Assembly (NCBI GenBank): GCA_903859055.1
Contig: CAIOLC010000257.1
Span: 1-40,695 of the forward strand
DNA from: an uncultured Chlorobiaceae bacterium
GTDB lineage: Bacteria; Bacteroidota; Chlorobiia; Chlorobiales; Chlorobiaceae
DNA: 40,695 nt
Direction of reading: 5' to 3'
The notes below the pieces were generated by a model that had not been told where the DNA came from, searched no databases, and saw only the letters and a program-made list of their open reading frames with translations. Below are positions 28,020-40,695 of the stretch, in pieces (the first letter of the stretch is position 1; each line of letters opens with the position of its first letter). Both the position numbers and the translations under genes were made by a program.

Positions 28020-29045
28020 ATGTTGACCATTGTTGTTGACGCCATGGGCGGTGACCACGCTCCCGCCTGTGTGATAGAGGGAACTGTTCAGGCTTTGCAG
28101 GAGAGCGGTAACCGGTTTGAAATCATTCTTGTCGGTCAGTCTGATAAAGTTGAGCCGCTTCTTGCCGGATATGATCTCACTGCGCTGAACATGAGATTTC
28201 TTCATGCGCCGGAAGTGATCACCATGGAAGACATTCCGGCCACTGCTGTCAAGACAAAGCAGAATTCATCACTTGTCAAGGGCTTGCAACTCTGCAAGAC
28301 AAAGCAGGCGGATGCGTTTGTCAGCGCGGGCAATACCGGTGCGCAGATGGCAGCCTCGCTCTTTGTGCTTGGCAGGCTTCCCGGTGTGCTTCGGCCCACG
28401 ATATACGCCTACTTTCCGCGTCTGACAGAAGGGTTAACCAACATTGTCGATGTGGGGGCAAATGTAGACTGCAAACCTGAAAACCTTGTGCAGTTTGCTG
28501 AAATGCTGACCATTTATCAACGATATGGCGCTGGAATAGAGAGACCGCTTACCGGCCTGTTGAACATTGGTGGGGAGGAAGGAAAGGGGTCAGAGGTACT
28601 CAAACAGACATACCGACTCCTGAAAGAGGCGGCCAGCAAGGGAACGATAACTTTTCTGGGAAATATAGAGGGACACGATATCCTGAAAGGAGAGGCCACC
28701 ATTGTTGTTTGCGACGGAGTTGTCGGCAACACCATCCTGAAATTTGGTGAAAGTATTCCTGAATTCCTTGGCACCTTGTTCAAGCACTCACTTGAAGTGC
28801 TGCTACTTTCCGGCCAGATCAACAAGGAGAGTGCTGCATTGATTACCGGTATGTTCAAGAGCATGTTTGAACCCTTTGATGTCGAACAATTTGGTGGTGT
28901 ACCCTTTCTTGGTGTTGACGGCATCTCGATTGTCGGCCACGGACGCTCCTCCTCAAGAGCCATAAAAAACATGATCTACATGGCCGAACACATGATCGAA
29001 AAAAGAGTCAACGAGCATATTGCTGAAGTTCTGTCCGAACAATAG
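28020..29045 (+). CDS. plsX: Phosphate acyltransferase PlsX
   Basis: [24 protein letters not shown]...; [39 protein letters not shown]. Confidence 0.96.
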
Positions 29046-29063
29046 AAAAACTGCATTGAACGC

Positions 29064-30053
29064 ATGAAAGCTGCAATTACGGCCACAGCCAAATATTTAC
29101 CTCCCGATATTCTGAGTAATCGCGATCTTGAGCTGATGCTTGAGACCAACGACGAGTGGATTCGTTCAAGGACTGGCATCAGTGAGCGCAGGATACTCAA
29201 GGATCCAGCAAAAGCAACATCATACATGTGCGGTGAGGTTGGACGGCTACTGCTTGAAAAAAGGCAGATTGCTGCAGATGACATTGAGCTGATCATTATT
29301 GCCACCATGACGCCGGACATGCTTTTTCCATCGACAGCCTGTCTGGTACAGAGCATCATTGGCGCAAGGAACGCCTGGGCTTTCGACCTTAATGCTGCCT
29401 GCTCAGGATTTCTCTATGCGCTGAACGTCGCTTCGCGCTTTATCGAAAGCGGAGCACACAAAAAAGTGATGGTCATTGGTGCCGATATGATGTCATCAAT
29501 TATTGATTATACCGATCGCTCCACAGCAATTCTTTTTGGAGATGGCGCTGGCGGTGTTATCCTCGAACCAGCAAAAGAGGAGGGTTTCGGCATTCTTGAC
29601 ACTCGCATGTACTCTGATGGAGCAAGCGGCAAAGATCGCCTGCTGATGACTGGCGGTGGCAGTCTGCATCCGGCAACTCATGAGACGATCGATAAAAAAA
29701 TGCACTATATCTATCAGGATGGACGACAGGTTTTCAAGTCTGCGGTTGTTGCCATGGCTGATGTTGCTGGCGAAATCATGAGTCGTAATAACCTCTCTGC
29801 CAACGACGTTGACTATCTGGTGCCACACCAGGCCAATCAACGAATCATTAACGCCACTGCGGAGCGAATGGGAGTTGACGACGAAAAGGTGGTTTCAAAC
29901 GTTGCCCGTTACGGCAACACCACAGCAGGAACCATCCCAATCTGTCTGGCTGAACTTGATGAAGAGCAGAAGCTGCACACAGGTTCCAATTTGGTTCTGG
30001 TTAGTTTTGGTGCCGGCTATACATGGGGCGGCATCTACCTAAAATGGCAATAA
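29064..30053 (+). CDS. fabH: 3-oxoacyl-[ACP] synthase III
   Basis: [69 protein letters not shown]. Confidence 0.97.
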
Positions 30054-30060
30054 GGAGATC

Positions 30061-30975
30061 ATGAAAGCTTTCGTTTTTCCGGGACAGGGCTCCCAATACT
30101 GCGGCATGGGCAAGGATATCTTTGACAATTTTGCAACTGCACGTTTGATGATGGAGAGGGCGAATGAGCTGCTCGGCTATTCGATAACCGATATCATGTT
30201 TTCAGGCAGTGAGGAGGAGTTGCGCCAGACAAAATATACCCAGCCAGCTATTTTTCTTCACAGCATCGCTGTTGCAACACTGATCGGACAGAATGATGTC
30301 GAAATGACAGCAGGTCACAGCCTCGGGGAGTATACCGCGCTCTGCTTTGCTGGATCCATCAGCTTTGATGATGCCATGCGCATTGTGGCAAAGCGTGGTG
30401 AGCTGATGCAGCATGCCGGTCAACAAAACCCTGGTACTATGGCTGCCATCATCGGCATGCCCGACAGCGCGCTTGAAGGACTTCTTGAGGAGGCTGGATT
30501 AGAGGGTATTGTTCAGGCTGCCAATTTCAATTCGCCCGGACAGATTGTTCTCTCCGGTGATATTGCCGCTATAATAAAAGCGGTAGCACTTGCCCCCTCC
30601 AAAGGGGCTCGCATGGCAAAAGAGCTGGTGGTTTCCGGGGCATTTCACTCCCCTCTCATGAAACCTGCCGAAACAGAGCTTGCCGCCGCTCTTGATGGTA
30701 TTGAGATAAAAAATGCCTCGATACCGGTCTGCATGAATGCTGTAGCCCGTCCGATAACTGACGCAGCAGAGATCCACCAGAATCTTATTCTGCAACTGAC
30801 CAGCTCTGTGCTCTGGTCGCAGTCAATCGAGGCAATGGTGCAAAACGGCATGACAGAGTTTATAGAGGTCGGCCCGCAGAAGGTGTTGCAGGGTCTGATC
30901 AAACGAATTGACAAAAGTGTAACGATCAGTGGCATCGACACTGCTGCGGATATTCAGGCTCTCAAAGCCTTGTAA
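30061..30975 (+). CDS. fabD: Malonyl CoA-ACP transacylase
   Basis: [50 protein letters not shown]. Confidence 0.96.
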
Positions 30976-31056
30976 GGGCGACCTATCGGTAGCTCTGCTC
31001 ATTGCACAGAAAATTTATTGGCACCCTTGAATAATAAACATCAACCGACTGAAACT

Positions 31057-31794
31057 ATGTTTGAAGGAAAAATCGCTGTTGTCACTGGATCAGCCAGAGG
31101 AATCGGACAGGCTATTGCGTATAACCTTGCCGCCAGAGGTGCCGATATTGTGCTGTGCGACATTAAGGCTGAATGGCTTTCAGAAAGTGCCGAAGGGGTA
31201 AAAAAACTTGGCAGAAAGGCTTACTGTTTTGAACTCGATGTCACCAACGCCACTGCCGTACAGAATGCCTTTAACGACATTGCTGCTGAGACCGGAAGAA
31301 TCGATATCCTCGTTAACAATGCAGGCATTACCAAGGACGGCCTGCTGATGAGAATGAGTGAAGAGGATTGGGATGCCGTACTTACTGTCAATCTGAAAGG
31401 TACCTTTGCCTGCACCAAGGCGGTCAGCCGCATCATGATGAAGCAGCGCTCGGGATCGATCATCAACATCGCTTCGGTCGTCGGACTGATGGGCAATGCC
31501 GGACAGGCCAACTATGCCGCATCGAAAGGTGGAGTTATTGCCTTCACAAAATCCATTGCCAAAGAGTTTGCATCCCGCAACATCAGGGCAAACGCCGTTG
31601 CACCGGGATTCATTTCATCGAAAATGACCGATGCTCTCTCCGATGAAGTTCGCCAGAAAATGCTTGAGGCTATCCCTCTCGCCAGCTTTGGCACTCCTGA
31701 GGATGTAGCCAACGCAGTGGCATTCCTGGCCAGTGACCAGTCCTCATATATTACCGGACAGGTCATCAGCGTCAACGGCGGTATGGTTATGTGA
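31057..31794 (+). CDS. fabG: 3-oxoacyl-[ACP] reductase
   Basis: [66 protein letters not shown]. Start at MFEGK. Confidence 0.95.
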
Positions 31795-31883
31795 TTTGGG
31801 CAAGCATCTTTTCTTTGTATATTGGCAGACTTTTTTAAAATTTTTCATTCTAACAACCCAACGTTTAATCAGGAGAACACACC

Positions 31884-32123
31884 ATGACTCAAGCAGAAAT
31901 CAAAGATAAAGTATACGACATTATCGTCAGCAAGATGGGCGTCAACAAAGATCAGATCAAATCGGACTCAAAATTTTCTGATGATCTTGGGGCAGATTCA
32001 CTTGATACCGTTGAGTTGATCATGGAGCTTGAGAGCGAGTTCGGTGTACAGATTCCTGATGAGGATGCAGAGAAGATCGGCACCGTGCAACAGGCTATTG
32101 ATTACATCGTCAACAAAAAGTAA
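31884..32123 (+). CDS. acpP: Acyl carrier protein
   Basis: [36 protein letters not shown]. Confidence 0.97.
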
Positions 32124-32173
32124 ACTGGCGTTACCGGAAAACATGCAAACGGCAAACAGATAAATCAGAAGCT

Positions 32174-33427
32174 ATGGCTCAGGATCGCAAGAGAATTGTC
32201 ATTACCGGAATAGGAGTTTTGACTCCTGTAGGTCTTTCCAAAGAGGAGTTCTGGAACTCCCTCTCTCAAGGAAGAAGCGGTGCGGCACCAATTACCTATT
32301 TCGATACCACCGATTTTGCGACAACCTTTGCCTGCGAGCTGAAAGGATTTTCGGCAACAGACCATATCGACAAAAAATCTGCTGACAGGATGGATCCATA
32401 CTGTCAGTATGCCGTTATCGCTGCCGGGCAGGCACTGACCGATTCAGGGCTTGACCTGAAGGCAATTGATCCGCTCAGAATCGGCGTGGTGCACGGCTCT
32501 GGCATTGGCGGGATGACCACCTACGAGCAGCAGTTCGAGACCTTTCTTTCACGAGGAGCAAGACGCATCAGCCCCTTCTTTATTCCCATGCTGATCCCCG
32601 ATATTGCAGCAGGGCAGATCTCAATCCGTTACGGTCTCATGGGGCCAAACTATGCAACCGCTTCTGCCTGTGCAACATCGCTTCACGCCATTATTGACTC
32701 GTACCTGCTGATTCAGGCTGGAATGGCCGATTATATGGTTTGTGGCGGTTCAGAGGCACCAATCACGAGGATGAGCGTTGGCGGCTTCAACGCAGCCAGA
32801 GCTCTTTCAACCGCAAACGACCGGCCACAGCAGGCATCTCGACCTTATGACCGCGACCGTGACGGCTTTGTCATGGGAGAGGGGGGAGGGTCGCTGATTC
32901 TTGAATCTCTGGATTCTGCAAAAGCACGCGGGGCAAAAATTTACGGTGAAATCGTTGGTGTCGGGGCAACAGCCGATGCTTACCACCTGACCGCCCCGCA
33001 CCCCGAAGGAATTGGTGCGGTCAATGCCATGAGAACGGCCATAACGATGGCGGGCATTACCCCCGAACAGATCGACTACATTAACACCCACGGCACCTCT
33101 ACTCCACTCGGAGACCTTGCAGAGATTGCCGCCATCAAGAGACTTTTTGGTGAACACGCCTACAAGTTGAGTATCAGCGCAACCAAATCGATGACCGGCC
33201 ACCTTTTGGGCGCTGCCGGAGTTGTCGAGTCAATTGCCTGCCTCCTTGCCTTGCAGCACCAGACGGTTCCACCGACGATCAACCTCGACAATCTTGACCC
33301 GATGGTTGACCTGGATGTTACGCCGAACACTCCGAAAAAACGCACTATAGAGTACGCTCTCAATAATGGCTTCGGCTTTGGCGGGCACAACGGCTCTATT
33401 ATTTTCAGGAACGGATCTTCGCTCTGA
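32174..33427 (+). CDS. fabF: 3-oxoacyl-[ACP] synthase II
   Basis: [71 protein letters not shown]. Confidence 0.97.
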
Positions 33428-33437
33428 GGAGCTGAAA

Positions 33438-34277
33438 TTGCCAGCTTTGGAGAAATTGTGGGAAAGGCTGGTGGCTTTTGGGGGGTTTGGGGAGGCTGAG
33501 GATATAGAGAATAGGAATTATAGGACTAATACGACTGATGGGGCTGGGCAGACCACGGGGTGTGAGCTTTCAGAGGAGAGTATTGAGTATTTGAGGGGGA
33601 TTTTGGGAGAGGAGGCTGGATCCATGATGCTTTACCAGACAGCTTTGACTCACCGATCTTTTGTGCATAGACCTGCTACTGCAGAACCTGTAGAATCAAA
33701 CCAGCGTCTTGAGTTTCTTGGCGATTCGGTGCTTGGGCTGTTGATCTCTGACTACCTTTTCAGACTCTTTCCCGAAAGCGCTGAAGGTGAGCTTTCGAGT
33801 ACCCGCGCAAAAATTGTCAACAGTCGCTCCCTTGCCGCATTTGCCCGCACGATTGCGCTTGGCGACCATATCCGCCTTGGAGAAACGACCGATCACCAGA
33901 ACATCAGGAGTAGTGAGTCGGCCCTGGCTGATGCCTTTGAGTCGCTCATTGGCGCTATCTATCTCGACAAAGGGCTGCAGAAGGCCTATGATTTTGTGAT
34001 TCGCCATATCATTGAGCATGTCAACTTCAACACCATCGTTGCCGCCGAGCACAACTACAAAAGCCGCCTCATTGAGTACACCCAGTCGCACCATCTGCCA
34101 GCACCCGTCTACACGGTGCTTGCCGAAGCCGGTGCTGAACATGCAAAATCCTTTACCGTCACCGTAACCTGCAATGAAGCACTCCTTGGAACAGGAACTG
34201 CACGACGCAAAAAGGATGCCGAGCAACTGGCGGCCAGGGAGGCTATGGAGATACTTGACAGAGAAATTTCAGCTTAA
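33438..34277 (+). CDS. rnc: Ribonuclease III (proposed TTG start)
   Basis: YQTALTHRSF, QRLEFLGDSVLGLLISDYLF, ESALADAFESLIGAIYLDKGL, C-terminal dsRBD. GAGGAG about 4-5 nt before an in-frame TTG at 33438; the ORF is open further upstream, overlapping fabF. Confidence 0.9.
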   Translation: MPALEKLWERLVAFGGFGEAEDIENRNYRTNTTDGAGQTTGCELSEESIEYLRGILGEEAGSMMLYQTALTHRSFVHRPATAEPVESNQRLEFLGDSVLGLLISDYLFRLFPESAEGELSSTRAKIVNSRSLAAFARTIALGDHIRLGETTDHQNIRSSESALADAFESLIGAIYLDKGLQKAYDFVIRHIIEHVNFNTIVAAEHNYKSRLIEYTQSHHLPAPVYTVLAEAGAEHAKSFTVTVTCNEALLGTGTARRKKDAEQLAAREAMEILDREISA

Positions 34278-34610
34278 ATCTGATACACCTCCCAATAAGT
34301 GTCAAAACCCTGAGCATTCTTACTATTTTCTCGGCATCCTGGTTTTGAACGTCTGGTGTACATTGAATCGCCCTCTTGGTGTAACCCTTCAAGGGTCGAC
34401 TCAATGACTCTATCACATGCTTCAATTTTTTTGAAATCTCCACAGAGGTTTAACAATGAACCCCGCAGGCAAACATAATACCGTGAAACGACCCCGTTTT
34501 TCATCCATTATTTCCGTGGACGCTGCACATTCATGGCTTATAATGCTCTTGAGATTCCTCGCAATCCCAAGCAAAACAAAGATCATTGCGACCATTTCTA
34601 TGAAAGTCAA
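34274..34610 (-). pseudogene. Possible decayed coding sequence (two overlapping frames, uncertain IS110-like)
   Basis: Frame 1 MTFIEMVAMIFVLLGIARNLKSIISHE...; frame 2 ...KKIEACDRVIESTLEGLHQE..., loosely like the IEACDxxIE segment of IS110-type transposases. Weak. Confidence 0.2.
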
Positions 34611-34859
34611 TCTCCTGGTTTGATAATGTACTTTCTTGATTCCCTCTCTTCAGATAGAGAATTCCCTATTACTTTTTGCAAACATAACATCGTACATTGT
34701 TTGGACATTATCGCCCTCTTTCCAAGCGCGTTCTTTTTGCCATTGATGATGAAATGATTTTGATGGTTACTGCGCTTGATTGCCGCAGAAATCCTGACTC
34801 AATAAAGACAAAATTGCGCGGATGACGATTATCAAAAAAAGTGAAAATCACCACAACCT

Positions 34860-35288
34860 ATGATTATCAAGCAACTCTCGGTGTTTCTCGAAAACAGGAC
34901 TGGACGGCTGACGGAACTGACCGCTATTCTTGCCGCCAACGACATCAATATCTCGGCATTCAGTATTGCCGATACTGCCGACTACGGTATTCTGCGCATG
35001 ATTGTCGGACGGCCGGATGCGGCGGCAGAGATACTGCGCAAGGCGGGATTTGCCGTCAAAATTACTGATGTGGTCGGTATGATTATCCCCCACAGACCCG
35101 GCGGGCTGCACAAGGCGCTGCAGCTTATTTCCGACAATAACGTAGCCATTGACTACATGTACGCTTTCGCCTCTGGAGACTGTAAGGCCACCGTGGTTAT
35201 AAGAGCGGAATCGTTGCAGAAACTCATTGATGTCCTACAGGAGCACAAGATGGAACTGCTGCAGGAGGGGGATGTCTATCAGGTGTAA
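34860..35288 (+). CDS. Tandem ACT-domain protein
   Basis: IKQLSVFLENRTGRLTELTAILAANDINISAFSIADTADYGILRMIV and second ACT half GGLHKALQLISDNNVAIDYMYAF. Confidence 0.9.
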   Translation: MIIKQLSVFLENRTGRLTELTAILAANDINISAFSIADTADYGILRMIVGRPDAAAEILRKAGFAVKITDVVGMIIPHRPGGLHKALQLISDNNVAIDYMYAFASGDCKATVVIRAESLQKLIDVLQEHKMELLQEGDVYQV

Positions 35289-35377
35289 CCAATTACCAAT
35301 ATGTTGCTCCTACGGAGGCTTGTACTCCATTGCCCTGAAGGAGCCTTATGCTGTTAGTGATAACAACAAATACAATC

Positions 35378-36571
35378 ATGCCAAGATTTTCTAAAGCAGT
35401 TTCATCACTCCGCTCTTCCGAAATCAGGGATCTCATGACCCTGGCCTCAAGACCGGACATCATCTCCTTTGCGGGTGGAATGCCCGGCAACGATCTCTTT
35501 CCCGTTCAGGCGATTGAGGATCTTTTCAAAGCGCTCGACATCAAAAAAAAGCGCATTGCATTTCAGTACGGCCCGACACCCGGCCTTCCCTCACTGCTTG
35601 AGTCACTGAGCGGCTTCCTCGAAAAAAAGGGGTTGCCGGTACACACGAACCGACTGCTCATCACCACCGGCTCACAACAGGGGCTCAATCTGCTTGGCAA
35701 AGCCTTTATTGATCCTCACGACCCTGTCCTTGTCGAAAATCCCTGCTTTATCGGAGCCCTCTCGGCTTTCCGCTCCTACGACGCTGAACTGAGAGGTGTC
35801 CCCGTTGACCGCGACGGTATTGTCATGGAGGCGCTGCAACAAGAAATCGACAAAAAAGAGAAGCCGAAATTTCTCTACATCACACCCTATTTCCACAACC
35901 CGGCAGGGCTGCTCTACAGTTCTGAACGCAAAGAGCAACTTATAACCGCGCTTCAGGGGCGCGATATCCCGCTGATTGAGGATGATGCCTACGGCGACCT
36001 CTACTTTTTCGAAGAGGATCGGGAACAACTCAAGCCCATAAAGGCGATCAATCCTGAAGGAATTGAGATTTGCTATACCGGTTCATTCTCCAAAATTCTT
36101 GGCCCCGGCCTGCGACTGGGCTGGATGCTGGTGCCTGAAGAGATCTACCAAAAATGCGAACTGATCAAGCAATCCGCCGACGCCTGTTCGCCGAGCTTTA
36201 CCCAGGTACTGGCTGATGAGTTTATCCGCTCCGGCCAGATTTACAGCTATATCGCCACTGTTCGGCAGGAGTACAAAAGAAGGGCAAACGCCATGGTTTC
36301 TGCTCTCAAGGAACACCTGCCAAACTACGTCCAGTGGAACGAACCACGAGGGGGCTTTTACCTCTGGCTCACTCTGCCGGAAGAGACCGATGCTACGAAA
36401 ATTGTGCAACTTGCCATCGAGGGCGGCGCGGTGTTTGTGATTGGGAAGACGTTCGATCCGGCAGGAACGCACAACAATTCACTCCGCCTCTCCTATTGCA
36501 ACAACACCCTGGAGCAGATCGCCGAGGGAATTCCGATTGTGGCACGAGCCATACGGCAGGTGTGCGGGTGA
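35378..36571 (+). CDS. PLP-dependent class I/II aminotransferase (LysN/2-aminoadipate-like)
   Basis: MTLASRPDIISFAGGMPGNDLFP; LLITTGSQQGLNLLGKAFIDP; YTGSFSKILGPGLRLGWM. Confidence 0.92.
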   Translation: MPRFSKAVSSLRSSEIRDLMTLASRPDIISFAGGMPGNDLFPVQAIEDLFKALDIKKKRIAFQYGPTPGLPSLLESLSGFLEKKGLPVHTNRLLITTGSQQGLNLLGKAFIDPHDPVLVENPCFIGALSAFRSYDAELRGVPVDRDGIVMEALQQEIDKKEKPKFLYITPYFHNPAGLLYSSERKEQLITALQGRDIPLIEDDAYGDLYFFEEDREQLKPIKAINPEGIEICYTGSFSKILGPGLRLGWMLVPEEIYQKCELIKQSADACSPSFTQVLADEFIRSGQIYSYIATVRQEYKRRANAMVSALKEHLPNYVQWNEPRGGFYLWLTLPEETDATKIVQLAIEGGAVFVIGKTFDPAGTHNNSLRLSYCNNTLEQIAEGIPIVARAIRQVCG

Positions 36572-36631
36572 AAAAGCAACAATCAGCCAGCCCCCCTTCA
36601 CCGGCAAAACTTGAACAAAAACAGCAGCCCC

Positions 36632-38833
36632 ATGGCATCAAGCACGCATCAGGATCTCGCAGGATTTATCTGGAACATCGCCAACAAGCTCCGGGGCCCA
36701 TACCGTCCGCCGCAGTACCGACACGTCATGCTGCCCATGACCATCCTCCGCCGTCTTGATCTGGTGCTTGAACCAACCAAAGAGCCGGTGCTTGCCGAAC
36801 TGAAACGGCTGCAAGCCAAAGGGATAACCGGCCCGGCGTTCGAAGCCGCCCTCTCAAGAGTTGCCAACGGCGGCAACCGCAAACAGGCGCTCTACAACAC
36901 CAGCCCCTTCACCTTCCAGAAACTGCTTGGGGATGCTCCCAATATTGCCGACAACCTCATCTCCTATATCAGAGGCTTTTCACCCCGTGTTCGCGACATC
37001 TTCGAAAAATTCGAGTTTGAAAAGGAGATTGAAAAACTTGACGACAGCAACCGACTCTTCCTCATTGTCAAAGAGTTCTGCAGCTCAGAAATCGATCTCT
37101 CCCCGGCCAAACTCTCGAACCTCCAGATGGGCTACCTCTTTGAGGAGCTGGTCAGGAAATTCAACGAACAGGCCAATGAGGAGGCCGGAGACCACTTCAC
37201 CCCTCGCGAAGTTATCCGGCTCATGGTTGAACTGATGTTCGTCTACGAAGATGAGCTCTTCAAGGCTGGAAAATACAGCTCCATCTACGACCCGACAGCC
37301 GGAACCGGTGGTATGCTCTCCGTTGCCGAAGAGTACATCAAACGCAAAAACCGGGACGCCAACATTGAACTCTTCGGGCAGGAGTACAACCCGGAATCCT
37401 ACGCTATCTGCTGTTCCGACCTGCTCATCAAGGACGAGGAGATCAGCAACCTTGTCTATGGCGATACCCTCGGCATCAAGGATGCAAAAAGCCGCGCCTA
37501 CAACTTTTTACCGCAGGATGGCCACCCCGACAAACAGTTTCACTTCATGCTCTCCAACCCCCCTTTCGGTGTGGAGTGGAAACCTGAAAAAAGTTTTGTG
37601 GATGATGAAGCAGCCCAGGGGTTCAGCGGACGATTCGGAGCGGGGGTGCCGCGCATCAACGACGGCTCGCTGCTCTTTTTGCAACACATGATCTCCAAAT
37701 TCCACCCCTCACCCTCCAGCGGAGGCGACGGATCGCGCATCGCCATTGTCTTCAACGGCTCCCCCCTCTTCACCGGCGACGCAGGAAGCGGCGAGAGCAA
37801 CATCCGGCGCTGGATCATCGAAAACGACTGGCTCGATGCCGTCATTGCCCTCCCCGACCAGATGTTCTACAACACCGGCATCTACACCTACATCTGGATT
37901 GTCACCAACAAAAAGCCAAAAGAGCGAAAAGGGTATGTGCAGCTCATCGACGGAACCCGCCTCTTCCGCAAGATGAAAAAGAGCATGGGCAACAAGCGCA
38001 ACGAGCTCTCCGACGAGCATATCAGCGAACTGGTTCGTCTCTACGGCAACTTCCGCCAGAACACCCAGTGCACAACAGGGACCAACGGCAGTGAAGAGAA
38101 GCCCATAACCTCAAAAATATTCCGAAACTTCGACTTCGGCTACCTCAAAATGACCATTGAGCGCCCCCTCCGCCTCAACTTTCAGGCAAGCCAGGAACGC
38201 ATTGAACGCCTTACAAACGAAACCGCATTCCAGAACCTGATACTGAGTAAAAAGAGGTCGATTGATGCACAGGCAGAGGATTTCCGAAGCGGCAAAGCCA
38301 TGCAAGAGGCTCTGCTTGAAGCCCTGCGCGGCATGGAGAGTGACACACTCTACCGCAACCGCCCTGCCTTTCTGAAAGCGCTTGATGCAGCACTGAAAAG
38401 CGCCGATATAAAAATTGATGCCCCGCTGAAAAAGGCAATCCTCAGCACACTCAGCCAGCGCGATGAAAAAGCGGAGATCTGCCGCGACAGCAAAGGCAAC
38501 CCGGAACCCGATCCCGAACTGCGCGACACTGAACTGCTCCCGCTTCCTGACGACACTTTCCTTCCCCTGCCAATCGGCTACGAAAAAGATGCCGATAACA
38601 GCAAGCTCCTCAAACTGGTGCAGAGCCACTGCGAAGCGTATCTCCAGAGAGAGGTTCTGCCACACGTCAGCGATACCTGGATAGACCACACCAAAACAAA
38701 GGTCGGCTACGAAATTCCCCTCAACCGCCACTTTTACGTCTACAAACCACCGCGCCCGCTCGAAGAGATTGAGAGCGACATCAAAGCGCTCGAAACCAGC
38801 ATCCTCAACCTGCTCAGGGAGGTTGTTGAATGA
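36632..38833 (+). CDS. hsdM: Type I restriction-modification DNA methyltransferase subunit HsdM
   Basis: FIWNIANKLRGPYRPPQYRHVMLPMTILRRLD; GDHFTPREVIRLMVEL; DPTAGTGGML (motif I); FMLSNPPFGVEW (NPPF motif IV). Confidence 0.96.
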   Translation: MASSTHQDLAGFIWNIANKLRGPYRPPQYRHVMLPMTILRRLDLVLEPTKEPVLAELKRLQAKGITGPAFEAALSRVANGGNRKQALYNTSPFTFQKLLGDAPNIADNLISYIRGFSPRVRDIFEKFEFEKEIEKLDDSNRLFLIVKEFCSSEIDLSPAKLSNLQMGYLFEELVRKFNEQANEEAGDHFTPREVIRLMVELMFVYEDELFKAGKYSSIYDPTAGTGGMLSVAEEYIKRKNRDANIELFGQEYNPESYAICCSDLLIKDEEISNLVYGDTLGIKDAKSRAYNFLPQDGHPDKQFHFMLSNPPFGVEWKPEKSFVDDEAAQGFSGRFGAGVPRINDGSLLFLQHMISKFHPSPSSGGDGSRIAIVFNGSPLFTGDAGSGESNIRRWIIENDWLDAVIALPDQMFYNTGIYTYIWIVTNKKPKERKGYVQLIDGTRLFRKMKKSMGNKRNELSDEHISELVRLYGNFRQNTQCTTGTNGSEEKPITSKIFRNFDFGYLKMTIERPLRLNFQASQERIERLTNETAFQNLILSKKRSIDAQAEDFRSGKAMQEALLEALRGMESDTLYRNRPAFLKALDAALKSADIKIDAPLKKAILSTLSQRDEKAEICRDSKGNPEPDPELRDTELLPLPDDTFLPLPIGYEKDADNSKLLKLVQSHCEAYLQREVLPHVSDTWIDHTKTKVGYEIPLNRHFYVYKPPRPLEEIESDIKALETSILNLLREVVE

Positions 38834-40137
38834 GCCACTATCAGAGATATCCGGCTTACAGGGATTCCTGTGTGGAGTGGATCGGGGAGATACCGGGGCA
38901 TTGGGAGGTGAAGCAAACAAGACATATTTTCAAAATCTTTAGTGGTTCCACACCAAAAAGCGGCGAAGAGCTCTACTGGGATGGCGATATAACATGGTTT
39001 ACTCCTGATGATTTAGGCAATAACCAGCAAAAAAACATATCGGAGAGCCGAAGAAAAATAACTGAAGAGGGATATAAAAGTTGTGGAACCTCTCTTGCGA
39101 AAAAGAACAGCATTGTTTTTTCAACTCGCGCACCCATCGGACATATTGCACTTTCAACAGTACCGGCCTGTTGCAATCAAGGATGCAGAATTCTTGAACC
39201 TGAAAACGGGAATACTGACTATTGGTACTACACTCTGGCGTCAGCAAAACCAATCCTGCAAAGCTTGGGACAAGGAAGCACATTTATGGAGCTTCCTCGC
39301 CAAAGCCTTGCCAGTTTTAACTTACCGTTTCCCCCGCATGAAGAACAGCAAGCCATTGCAAGCTTCCTTGACCGGAAAACAGCAGAAATAGACGAACTGA
39401 TTACAAGAAAAAAGGAGCTGCTCAAAAAACTCGACGAAAAACGCACTGCACTCATCACCCGGGCCGTCACCAAAGGACTTGCCCCTTCAGCGCCGATGAA
39501 AGAGTCTGGTGTAGAGTGGCTTAGAGAGATTCCGAAACATTGGGAGGTGAAACAAACAAGACTTATTTTCAAAATATTCAGCGGTTCTACACCGAGAAGC
39601 GGCGAAGAACTCTTCTGGGATGGTGATATAGTCTGGTTTACTCCTGAAGATTTAGGCAATAACCAGCCAAAAAACATATCTGAAAGCCGAAGAAAAATAA
39701 CTGAAGAGGGATATAATAGCTGCGGCACCTCTCTTGCAAAATCAAACAGTGTTGTTCTTTCAACTCGCGCTCCCATCGGGCATTTTGCAATTTCAACAGT
39801 ACCAGCATGCTGCAATCAAGGATGCAGAATTCTTGAACCTGAAAACGGTATTCCAGAATATTGGTACTACACCCTGTTATCAGCAAAACCAATATTACAA
39901 TGCTTGGGACAAGGCAGCACTTTCATGGAGCTTCCCCGCCAAAGCCTTGCGGGTTTTAAATTACCAGTTCCCCCACTCGAAGAACAGCAAGCCATCGCGG
40001 AACACATAGAGAAAAAAACAGCAACAATAGATCGTCAGAAAGCACAAGTCACTGAAGCAATCGAACGGCTAAAGGAGTACAGAAGTGCGCTCATTACCGA
40101 CACCGTAACCGGTAAAATGAATGTTCAATTGCTATAA
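38830..40137 (+). CDS. hsdS: Type I restriction-modification specificity subunit HsdS with near-identical duplicated TRDs
   Basis: ATGA overlap with hsdM. Two TRDs each VEW..EIP.HWEVKQTR.IFKIFSGSTP.SGEEL.WDGDI.WFTP.DLGNN...PPxEEQQAIA, and conserved helices (FLDRKTAEIDELITRKKELLKKLDEKRTALITRAVTKG). Confidence 0.95.
   Translation: MSHYQRYPAYRDSCVEWIGEIPGHWEVKQTRHIFKIFSGSTPKSGEELYWDGDITWFTPDDLGNNQQKNISESRRKITEEGYKSCGTSLAKKNSIVFSTRAPIGHIALSTVPACCNQGCRILEPENGNTDYWYYTLASAKPILQSLGQGSTFMELPRQSLASFNLPFPPHEEQQAIASFLDRKTAEIDELITRKKELLKKLDEKRTALITRAVTKGLAPSAPMKESGVEWLREIPKHWEVKQTRLIFKIFSGSTPRSGEELFWDGDIVWFTPEDLGNNQPKNISESRRKITEEGYNSCGTSLAKSNSVVLSTRAPIGHFAISTVPACCNQGCRILEPENGIPEYWYYTLLSAKPILQCLGQGSTFMELPRQSLAGFKLPVPPLEEQQAIAEHIEKKTATIDRQKAQVTEAIERLKEYRSALITDTVTGKMNVQLL
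38872..39360 (+). repeat. Direct repeat copy 1: hsdS TRD1
   Basis: 163-codon unit VEWIGEIPGHW...EEQQAIA, in-frame duplicate of 39511-39999 at an offset of 639 bp. Confidence 0.95.
39511..39999 (+). repeat. Direct repeat copy 2: hsdS TRD2
   Basis: 163-codon unit VEWLREIPKHW...EEQQAIA; 24 residue differences from copy 1 by hand alignment. Confidence 0.95.
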
Positions 40138-40457
40138 CATGGTTGGGTGAGAAACCTTCGGTCAAACAGGCGCACGTCATTGTAACGATTCTTGGCGTGA
40201 CAGAGACCGCCACAGCCCTGCCCGCTTGTGGCTGGTTTAGCCAATCACATACATCCTGACATTAAATAAAAAAATTGTAAAATCCCTTCACAAAAGGTAA
40301 ATTCCGGTTGCTTTTTTTGGTAAAACGAATCTACAGCCACAAAATGTGGTCTTGTAGGCTATTGCTACTGTAGCAGAAAAACCTGACGTGTTTTTCTCCC
40401 TTGCCTTGATAACAGTACAATCATACAGATTACTTCAAATCCACAAACACATCAGCC

Positions 40458-40661
40458 ATGCAAGAGACGTCTCTTGAAACCACTATACAAAGATACCAGG
40501 AGCTGCTAAACAACAAAGATGTTAGGCAAATTGCGAGTTGGGTTGAGTCAAACAACTCTCAACCAACAGATGAGAGGGCACTTGTTGAAAGAGCTAAACT
40601 AAACGCTGAAAAGTTTTTTAAAAAAATTGATTCGGCCATGCAGCTCAACCTTCCACAATAA
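40458..40661 (+). CDS. Small hypothetical protein downstream of hsdS
   Basis: 67-aa ORF MQETSLETTIQRYQELLNNKDVRQIASWVESNN...; soluble helical composition; no family recognised. Confidence 0.4.
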   Translation: MQETSLETTIQRYQELLNNKDVRQIASWVESNNSQPTDERALVERAKLNAEKFFKKIDSAMQLNLPQ

Positions 40662-40695
40662 CGATAATGCCGTATGACATATCCTGAAGGTTGCG

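What the first reader, a model, noticed from the sequence alone, without database searches (positions are those of the whole stretch)
38830..40137. HsdS with two near-identical TRDs: predicted palindromic type I recognition site
Seen directly: the two target-recognition domains of this single HsdS (38872-39360 and 39511-39999) align over 163 residues without gaps and with only 24 differences, many conservative. Established: in type I systems each TRD reads one half of a bipartite target, usually two different half-sites, and engineered or truncated half-HsdS dimers give symmetric targets. Inference: this natural full-length HsdS should specify the same half-site twice in inverted orientation, giving an interrupted palindrome with m6A at equivalent positions on both strands.
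Basis: partly seen in the sequence, partly recalled or inferred. Interest (0 to 1): 0.75.

Follow-up and report, generated by a model that had tools for sequence, protein, structure and literature searches.

The report
Type I specificity subunit with matching TRDs
A green-sulfur-bacterial DNA-methylating defence enzyme carries two near-copies of the same DNA-reading domain, so it probably marks a mirror-symmetric site; this is a sound prediction, but the same arrangement is already proven in other bacteria.

Summary
Observation confirmed: window 38830-40137 (+) is a 435-aa HsdS whose two TRDs align without gaps over 163 residues with 24 differences. HsdM lies directly upstream; an HsdR 93% identical to that of a syntenic relative sits on another contig, cut off at its end. 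A gapped palindromic m6A site is a reasonable inference: all 13 positions aligned with DNA-contacting residues of S.PacII are the same in both TRDs, though this is only suggestive (P about 0.12). [quoted passage not shown] BstXI and H. pylori JHP1422 are further cases. What I add is the origin. In sister genomes at the same locus this TRD is paired with other TRDs, in position 1 (G083, G028, G027) or position 2 (G078). Window TRD2 is 98.7% nt identical to G078's TRD2, while TRD1 and TRD2 differ at dS about 0.55: probably TRD exchange, not recent duplication. Two of 89 comparable HsdS are like this. New member of a known kind.

The parts
36611..38833 (+). hsdM (740 aa from TTG 36611, 733 aa from ATG 36632): HsdM_N + N6_Mtase m6A methyltransferase subunit; its stop overlaps the hsdS start
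   Evidence: Pfam PF12161 2.9e-23 and PF02384 2.1e-54; 99.6% aa identical to the HsdM of G084 at the same locus
38830..40137 (+). hsdS (435 aa), full-length specificity subunit with two TRDs of one homology group
   Evidence: Pfam PF01420 twice; AF2 pLDDT 89.4; Foldseek best match 1YF2, E 3e-40
38872..39360 (+). TRD1 (type A); no mismatch to G083 TRD1 over 38976-39164
39361..39510 (+). central conserved helical region (coiled-coil ruler) shared with alleles that carry other TRDs
   Evidence: helix 170-215 in the model
39511..39999 (+). TRD2 (type A'), 98.7% nt identical to G078 TRD2 (459 nt compared); near-identity tract about 39524-39978
40000..40137 (+). distal conserved helical region (second helix of the antiparallel coiled coil)
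   Evidence: helix 383-426 in the model
40458..40661 (+). 67-aa ORF, followed by the start of a 172-aa ORF at 40674; the segment 40216-40695 is 98.75% identical to the segment between hsdS and hsdR in G083

Best explanation
This is the specificity subunit of an ordinary type I restriction-modification system (HsdM2-HsdS methyltransferase plus HsdR) that carries two TRDs of one homology group. The antiparallel coiled coil inverts the second TRD, so the two domains should read the same 3-4 bp half-site on opposite strands. The M2S enzyme would then put m6A at equivalent positions of a gapped palindrome (half-site, a spacer of about 5-8 bp, inverted half-site), and HsdR would cut unmodified DNA. 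The double-TRD gene most likely arose when the locus, which swaps TRDs freely among sister lineages, combined an A-type TRD in position 1 with an A'-type TRD in position 2. Shown: intact ORFs, TRD similarity, TRD exchange at the locus, presence of hsdM, and of most of a cognate hsdR on another contig. Inferred: activity, identity of the two half-sites, spacer length, and direction of the exchange.
For: TRDs 85% identical, gapless. Codon-position pattern 15/10/47 and dN/dS about 0.12 show that both TRD lineages were under purifying selection. All 13 positions aligned with base- or backbone-contacting residues of S.PacII are identical in both TRDs; within 3 residues of the base-contact positions there is one difference in 33 (P 0.02). 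Complete HsdS fold. Precedents: Btr188II, BstXI CCAN6TGG, JHP1422 TRD2+TRD3 giving AAGN5CTT, and equal specificity of one TRD group in both positions in H. pylori. Origin: window TRD2 and G078 TRD2 form a clade with 100% support, with dS 0.02 against 0.18 for HsdM (third positions p 2e-4). G083, G028 and G027 hold the same TRD in position 1 with other partners. HsdR: C232:19815-21935, 93% identical to the HsdR of the syntenic locus in G028, truncated by the contig end.
Against: No methylome exists for this genome. Homologous TRDs with only a few residue differences can read different bases (PMC3983042), and here there are 24. The contact mapping rests on a remote profile alignment to PacII, and identity at the 13 positions has P about 0.12 under random placement. 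hsdR is not on this contig. The half-site itself is unknown: the closest solved relative, S.MjaXI, has no known site.
Confidence: 0.75

Rival explanations
1. The two TRDs have drifted to slightly different half-sites, so the full site is a near-palindrome (for example one base or one degeneracy different between the halves).
For: 24 differences, some of them non-conservative (G/K at residue 23, Q/P 67, K/N 83, K/S 92, NTD/IPE 128-130, S/G 162, N/K 164); H. pylori TRD groups a and d change one base with few residue changes.
Against: No difference falls on a position aligned with a DNA-contacting residue of S.PacII; dN/dS about 0.12; Btr188II tolerates two 'imperfect' copies and still methylates a perfect palindrome.
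Confidence: 0.2
2. Assembly artefact: the gene is a chimera of two co-occurring alleles (A-X and X-A') joined through the conserved central region in a fragmented assembly.
For: The genome has 306 contigs and hsdS lies 558 bp from a contig end; the presumed parental alleles exist in sister genomes.
Against: The G078-like tract covers only TRD2 and ends on both sides (mismatches at 39523 and before, 39979 and after), so two wrong joins within about 500 bp would be needed. The central region differs from both G083 and G078 at the same dozen or so sites between 39375 and 39523, and the downstream 480 bp follow G083 at 98.75%, not G078.
Confidence: 0.06
3. Recent duplication of one TRD inside this gene.
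For: The two copies are adjacent, alike and in register.
Against: TRD1-TRD2 dS about 0.55, as large as between TRDs of different genomes, while TRD2-G078 dS is 0.02 and TRD1-G083 dS 0.11. An ancient duplication whose copies later spread separately is not excluded, because the position-2 copies form one clade.
Confidence: 0.05
4. The pair hsdM-hsdS is the modification half of a type II system with a palindromic site, as in BstXI, and not of a type I system.
For: BstXI has an S subunit with two similar TRDs; no restriction gene on this contig after hsdS.
Against: Syntenic loci in G083, G028, G048 and G075 carry a large HsdR-like ORF downstream (G028's has HSDR_N, SWI2_SNF2 and T1R_D3 domains), and the window's genome has that HsdR at 93% identity. 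Sister alleles with two different TRDs use nearly the same HsdM.
Confidence: 0.03

Closest known systems
Btr188II / Btr189I / Btr192III of Bibersteinia trehalosi (PMC4996451)
   Same: Natural type I system; full-length HsdS with two imperfect copies of one TRD; a sister strain carries an unrelated hsdS at the same locus
   Different: Site known by SMRT and cloning (m6ACGN6CGT); different bacterial group; here the site is unknown and the TRD exchange itself can be traced
M.BstXI S subunit (review PMC3874165)
   Same: Two similar, non-identical TRDs in one S chain; symmetric CCAN6TGG
   Different: Part of a type II system, whereas here the locus belongs to a type I system with HsdR
H. pylori JHP1422 (Hpy99XV; PMC3936762)
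   Same: Two identical TRDs in one HsdS give the palindrome AAGN5CTT
   Different: That HsdS has three TRDs and two specificities
Domain movement (DoMo) of type I TRDs in H. pylori (PMC3983042)
   Same: The same TRD group occupies position 1 in some alleles and position 2 in others
   Different: Here the groups are seen across sister genomes, and both positions are filled by the same group in one gene
NgoAV, EcoDXXI and EcoR124I half-HsdS, AhdI (PMC3874165)
   Same: Symmetric specificity from two equal half-subunits
   Different: Those are dimers of single-TRD proteins; this one is a single chain
S.MjaXI, PDB 1YF2
   Same: Closest solved HsdS (33% identity over 435 columns)
   Different: Its two TRDs are different; its recognition site is given as unknown (PMC3874165)

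Membership tests
Type I HsdS specificity subunit | Two Methylase_S domains in tandem joined by conserved helical regions | tested here: met
   PF01420 twice; helices 170-215 and 383-426 in a pLDDT 89 model; Foldseek matches 1YF2, 5YBB, PacII, EcoR124I
Type I HsdS specificity subunit | Cognate HsdM next to it | tested here: met
   HsdM_N + N6_Mtase at 36611-38833, overlapping start/stop
Type I restriction-modification system | HsdR with translocase | tested here: inconclusive
   Not on this contig; a 93% match covering residues 296-1002 of the syntenic G028 HsdR ends at a contig border of C232 in the same genome; the N-terminal nuclease part was not recovered
Homo-TRD HsdS (Btr188II kind) | Both TRDs belong to one homology group | tested here: met
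   85% identity against at most 39% in all but one other of 89 comparable HsdS
Homo-TRD HsdS (Btr188II kind) | Methylates a gapped palindrome | not testable with these tools
   No methylome for this genome
Half-HsdS homodimer (NgoAV, AhdI) | S protein with a single TRD | tested here: not met
   One intact 435-aa ORF with two TRDs
Phase-variable hsdS (SpnIII-like) locus | Silent hsdS cassettes with matching TRDs or inverted repeats in the same genome | tested here: not met
   Only one further weak match (27% identity) to this HsdS in the genome; within 34000-40695 no long inverted repeat (longest 19 nt). The genome is 94.75% complete and the contig ends 558 bp after hsdS
MADS defence system MAD2/MAD5 | NCBIfam equivalog cut-offs (720 and 400 bits) | tested here: not met
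   42.7 and 18.8 bits

The most novel reading that the evidence does not exclude
Symmetric type I specificity is a recurring, selectively maintained state in this genus, reached independently at different loci (this gene by TRD exchange, and the G052 gene with an unrelated TRD pair), and not a passing recombination by-product.
Probability: 0.15. Interest if true: 0.45.

Novelty: new member of a known kind. Interest (0 to 1): 0.3.

Why it matters
It is a clean natural test of the rule that a TRD reads the same half-site in either position: the same TRD group exists alone in position 1 (G083, G028, G027), alone in position 2 (G078) and in both (window). Comparing the methylomes of those alleles would give the half-site and show which of the 24 differences matter. 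It also shows how symmetric type I enzymes can arise, by meeting of two diverged copies of a TRD group rather than by fresh duplication.

Tried and rejected
Recent tandem duplication: rejected by dS and the TRD tree. Orphan methyltransferase without HsdR: judged unlikely, since syntenic relatives and the genome itself have the HsdR. Phase-variable shufflon: no silent cassettes found. MADS membership: far below cut-offs. Predicting the half-site from solved relatives: S.MjaXI has no known site, and the other solved HsdS are too distant (EcoKI 14%, PacII 18%, EcoR124I 22% identity in the fold search). The dN/dS of 0.12 between the TRDs was at first read as selection within this gene; because the TRDs had mostly separate histories, it reflects selection in the separate lineages. 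Two early family searches failed on a wrong third ORF frame and were rerun.

Full report
Observation. The ORF 38830-40137 (+) encodes 435 aa. Its two TRDs, 38872-39360 and 39511-39999, align over 163 residues without gaps and with 24 differences; the DNA differs at 72 of 489 sites, 47 of them third codon positions, dN 0.077, dS 0.617. The similarity is not chance (score 755 against a shuffle maximum of 60) and is unusual for HsdS. Among 101 non-redundant HsdS from a survey of the phylum (with a few from other phyla), 89 had halves that could be compared; 87 of these lie at or below 39% identity, and two stand apart, this one (76% over the whole half) and one in genome G052 (84%).

What it is. 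Pfam finds Methylase_S twice in this protein, and HsdM_N plus N6_Mtase in the ORF directly upstream. An AlphaFold model made from 16 relatives has mean pLDDT 89 and pTM 0.77, with the two long helices that form the coiled-coil ruler; Foldseek puts 1YF2 (S.MjaXI) first, then EcoKI, Thermoanaerobacter HsdS, PacII and EcoR124I. It is an ordinary type I specificity subunit in fold and setting.

The rest of the system. The contig ends 558 bp after hsdS. At the same locus in sister genomes G083, G028, G048 and G075, hsdM-hsdS are followed, directly or after a variable set of genes, by a gene starting MNLLQLIDLVASGED or similar and an ORF of about 1000 aa. In G028 these two carry SLFN_AlbA_2 and HSDR_N, SWI2_SNF2 and T1R_D3 domains respectively. 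The window's own genome holds an HsdR 93% identical to G028's from residue 296 on, running into the end of contig C232. The 480 bp at the end of the window are 98.75% identical to the segment between hsdS and hsdR in G083. The simplest reading is an assembly gap between C257 and C232 and a complete M-S-(x)-R system; the join itself is not shown.

Origin of the twin TRDs. Around the same hsdM, sister genomes carry different TRD pairs. Naming this TRD A, they are: G083 A-X1, G028 A-X2, G027 A-B (cut by the contig end), G078 X3-A', G084 X4-B, G077 X5-B, G048 X4-B, G075 B-X6. At another locus, with a different HsdM, G066 has A-X7 (the grouping of X and B TRDs was made by eye from the sequences). 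So both A and B occur in either position. A TRD with 85% or more identity to the TRD1 core occurs in only seven places in 86 genomes of the family, two of them in this gene; the next match is at 42%. Window TRD1 is closest to G083 TRD1 (96% nt, no mismatch over 38976-39164) and window TRD2 to G078 TRD2 (98.7% nt), with 100% support for the latter pair. TRD2 and G078 TRD2 differ at dS 0.02, while the HsdM genes of these two genomes differ at dS 0.18 (third positions, p 2e-4); TRD1 against G083 (dS 0.11 against 0.18) does not differ from the HsdM background; TRD1 against TRD2 is dS 0.55. TRD2 was thus recently exchanged between the window and G078 lineages (direction unknown), and the two TRDs of this gene are old, separate copies. 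The near-identity to G078 stops at both edges of TRD2, as expected of TRD replacement and not of a single wrong assembly join.

Do the two TRDs read the same half-site? In S.PacII, residues R75, R76, H94 (TRD1) and K209, A272, Q291, R329, N331 (TRD2) contact bases, and others contact the backbone (PMC9613975). Mapped through the profile alignment, they fall on 13 positions of the window TRDs (TRD1 numbering: residues 37, 38, 87, 100-103, 105, 117, 118, 150, 152, 154), and all are identical in TRD1 and TRD2. Under random placement of 24 differences this has P 0.12; within 3 residues of the base-contact positions there is one difference in 33 (P 0.02). This supports equal specificity without proving it. 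H. pylori TRD groups warn that a few changes can alter one base (PMC3983042).

What is known. The review PMC3874165 lists BstXI as an S subunit with two similar TRDs and CCAN6TGG. [quoted passage not shown] H. pylori JHP1422, with two identical TRDs, methylates AAGN5CTT, and the authors treat homologous TRDs giving palindromes as commonly accepted (PMC3936762). TRD movement between positions is established (PMC3983042). The present gene is therefore a new member of a known kind; the additions here are its traceable assembly by TRD exchange and a second, independent case in the same genus.

Verdict. Observation confirmed; inference likely (0.75) but untested; interest 0.3.

Noticed in passing
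L075 (G052:C10), HsdS starting at L075:1492: A second homo-TRD HsdS in the same genus with an unrelated TRD: 18 differences in 170 aligned residues, 90% nt identity between the two copies, beside a different HsdM. Its origin was not traced.
   Followed up: partly
L091, L092, L093, L095 downstream of hsdS: Between hsdS and hsdR the sister loci carry variable genes, among them a short protein starting MKTIKIFLASSNELKHDREQFE (no Pfam match in the G028 copy), NB-ARC/TPR proteins and a ParA-like fusion: a possible cargo site for further defence genes inside a type I operon.
   Followed up: no
G064:C46:48113-48616 and 54274-55011; G073:C111:8048-8218: Fragments of the same hsdM at 95-97% identity, in G064 two pieces about 6 kb apart: the locus looks interrupted or decayed in these genomes.
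   Followed up: no
window 38869-38871, 39481-39483 and 39523-39525: The window HsdS has private residues at otherwise conserved framework positions (G14C, D218A, G232R).
   Followed up: no
window 28020-34277: Fatty-acid synthesis cluster by sequence (plsX-, fabH-, fabD-, fabG-, fabF-like ORFs) followed by an rnc-like ORF, upstream of the restriction locus.
   Followed up: no
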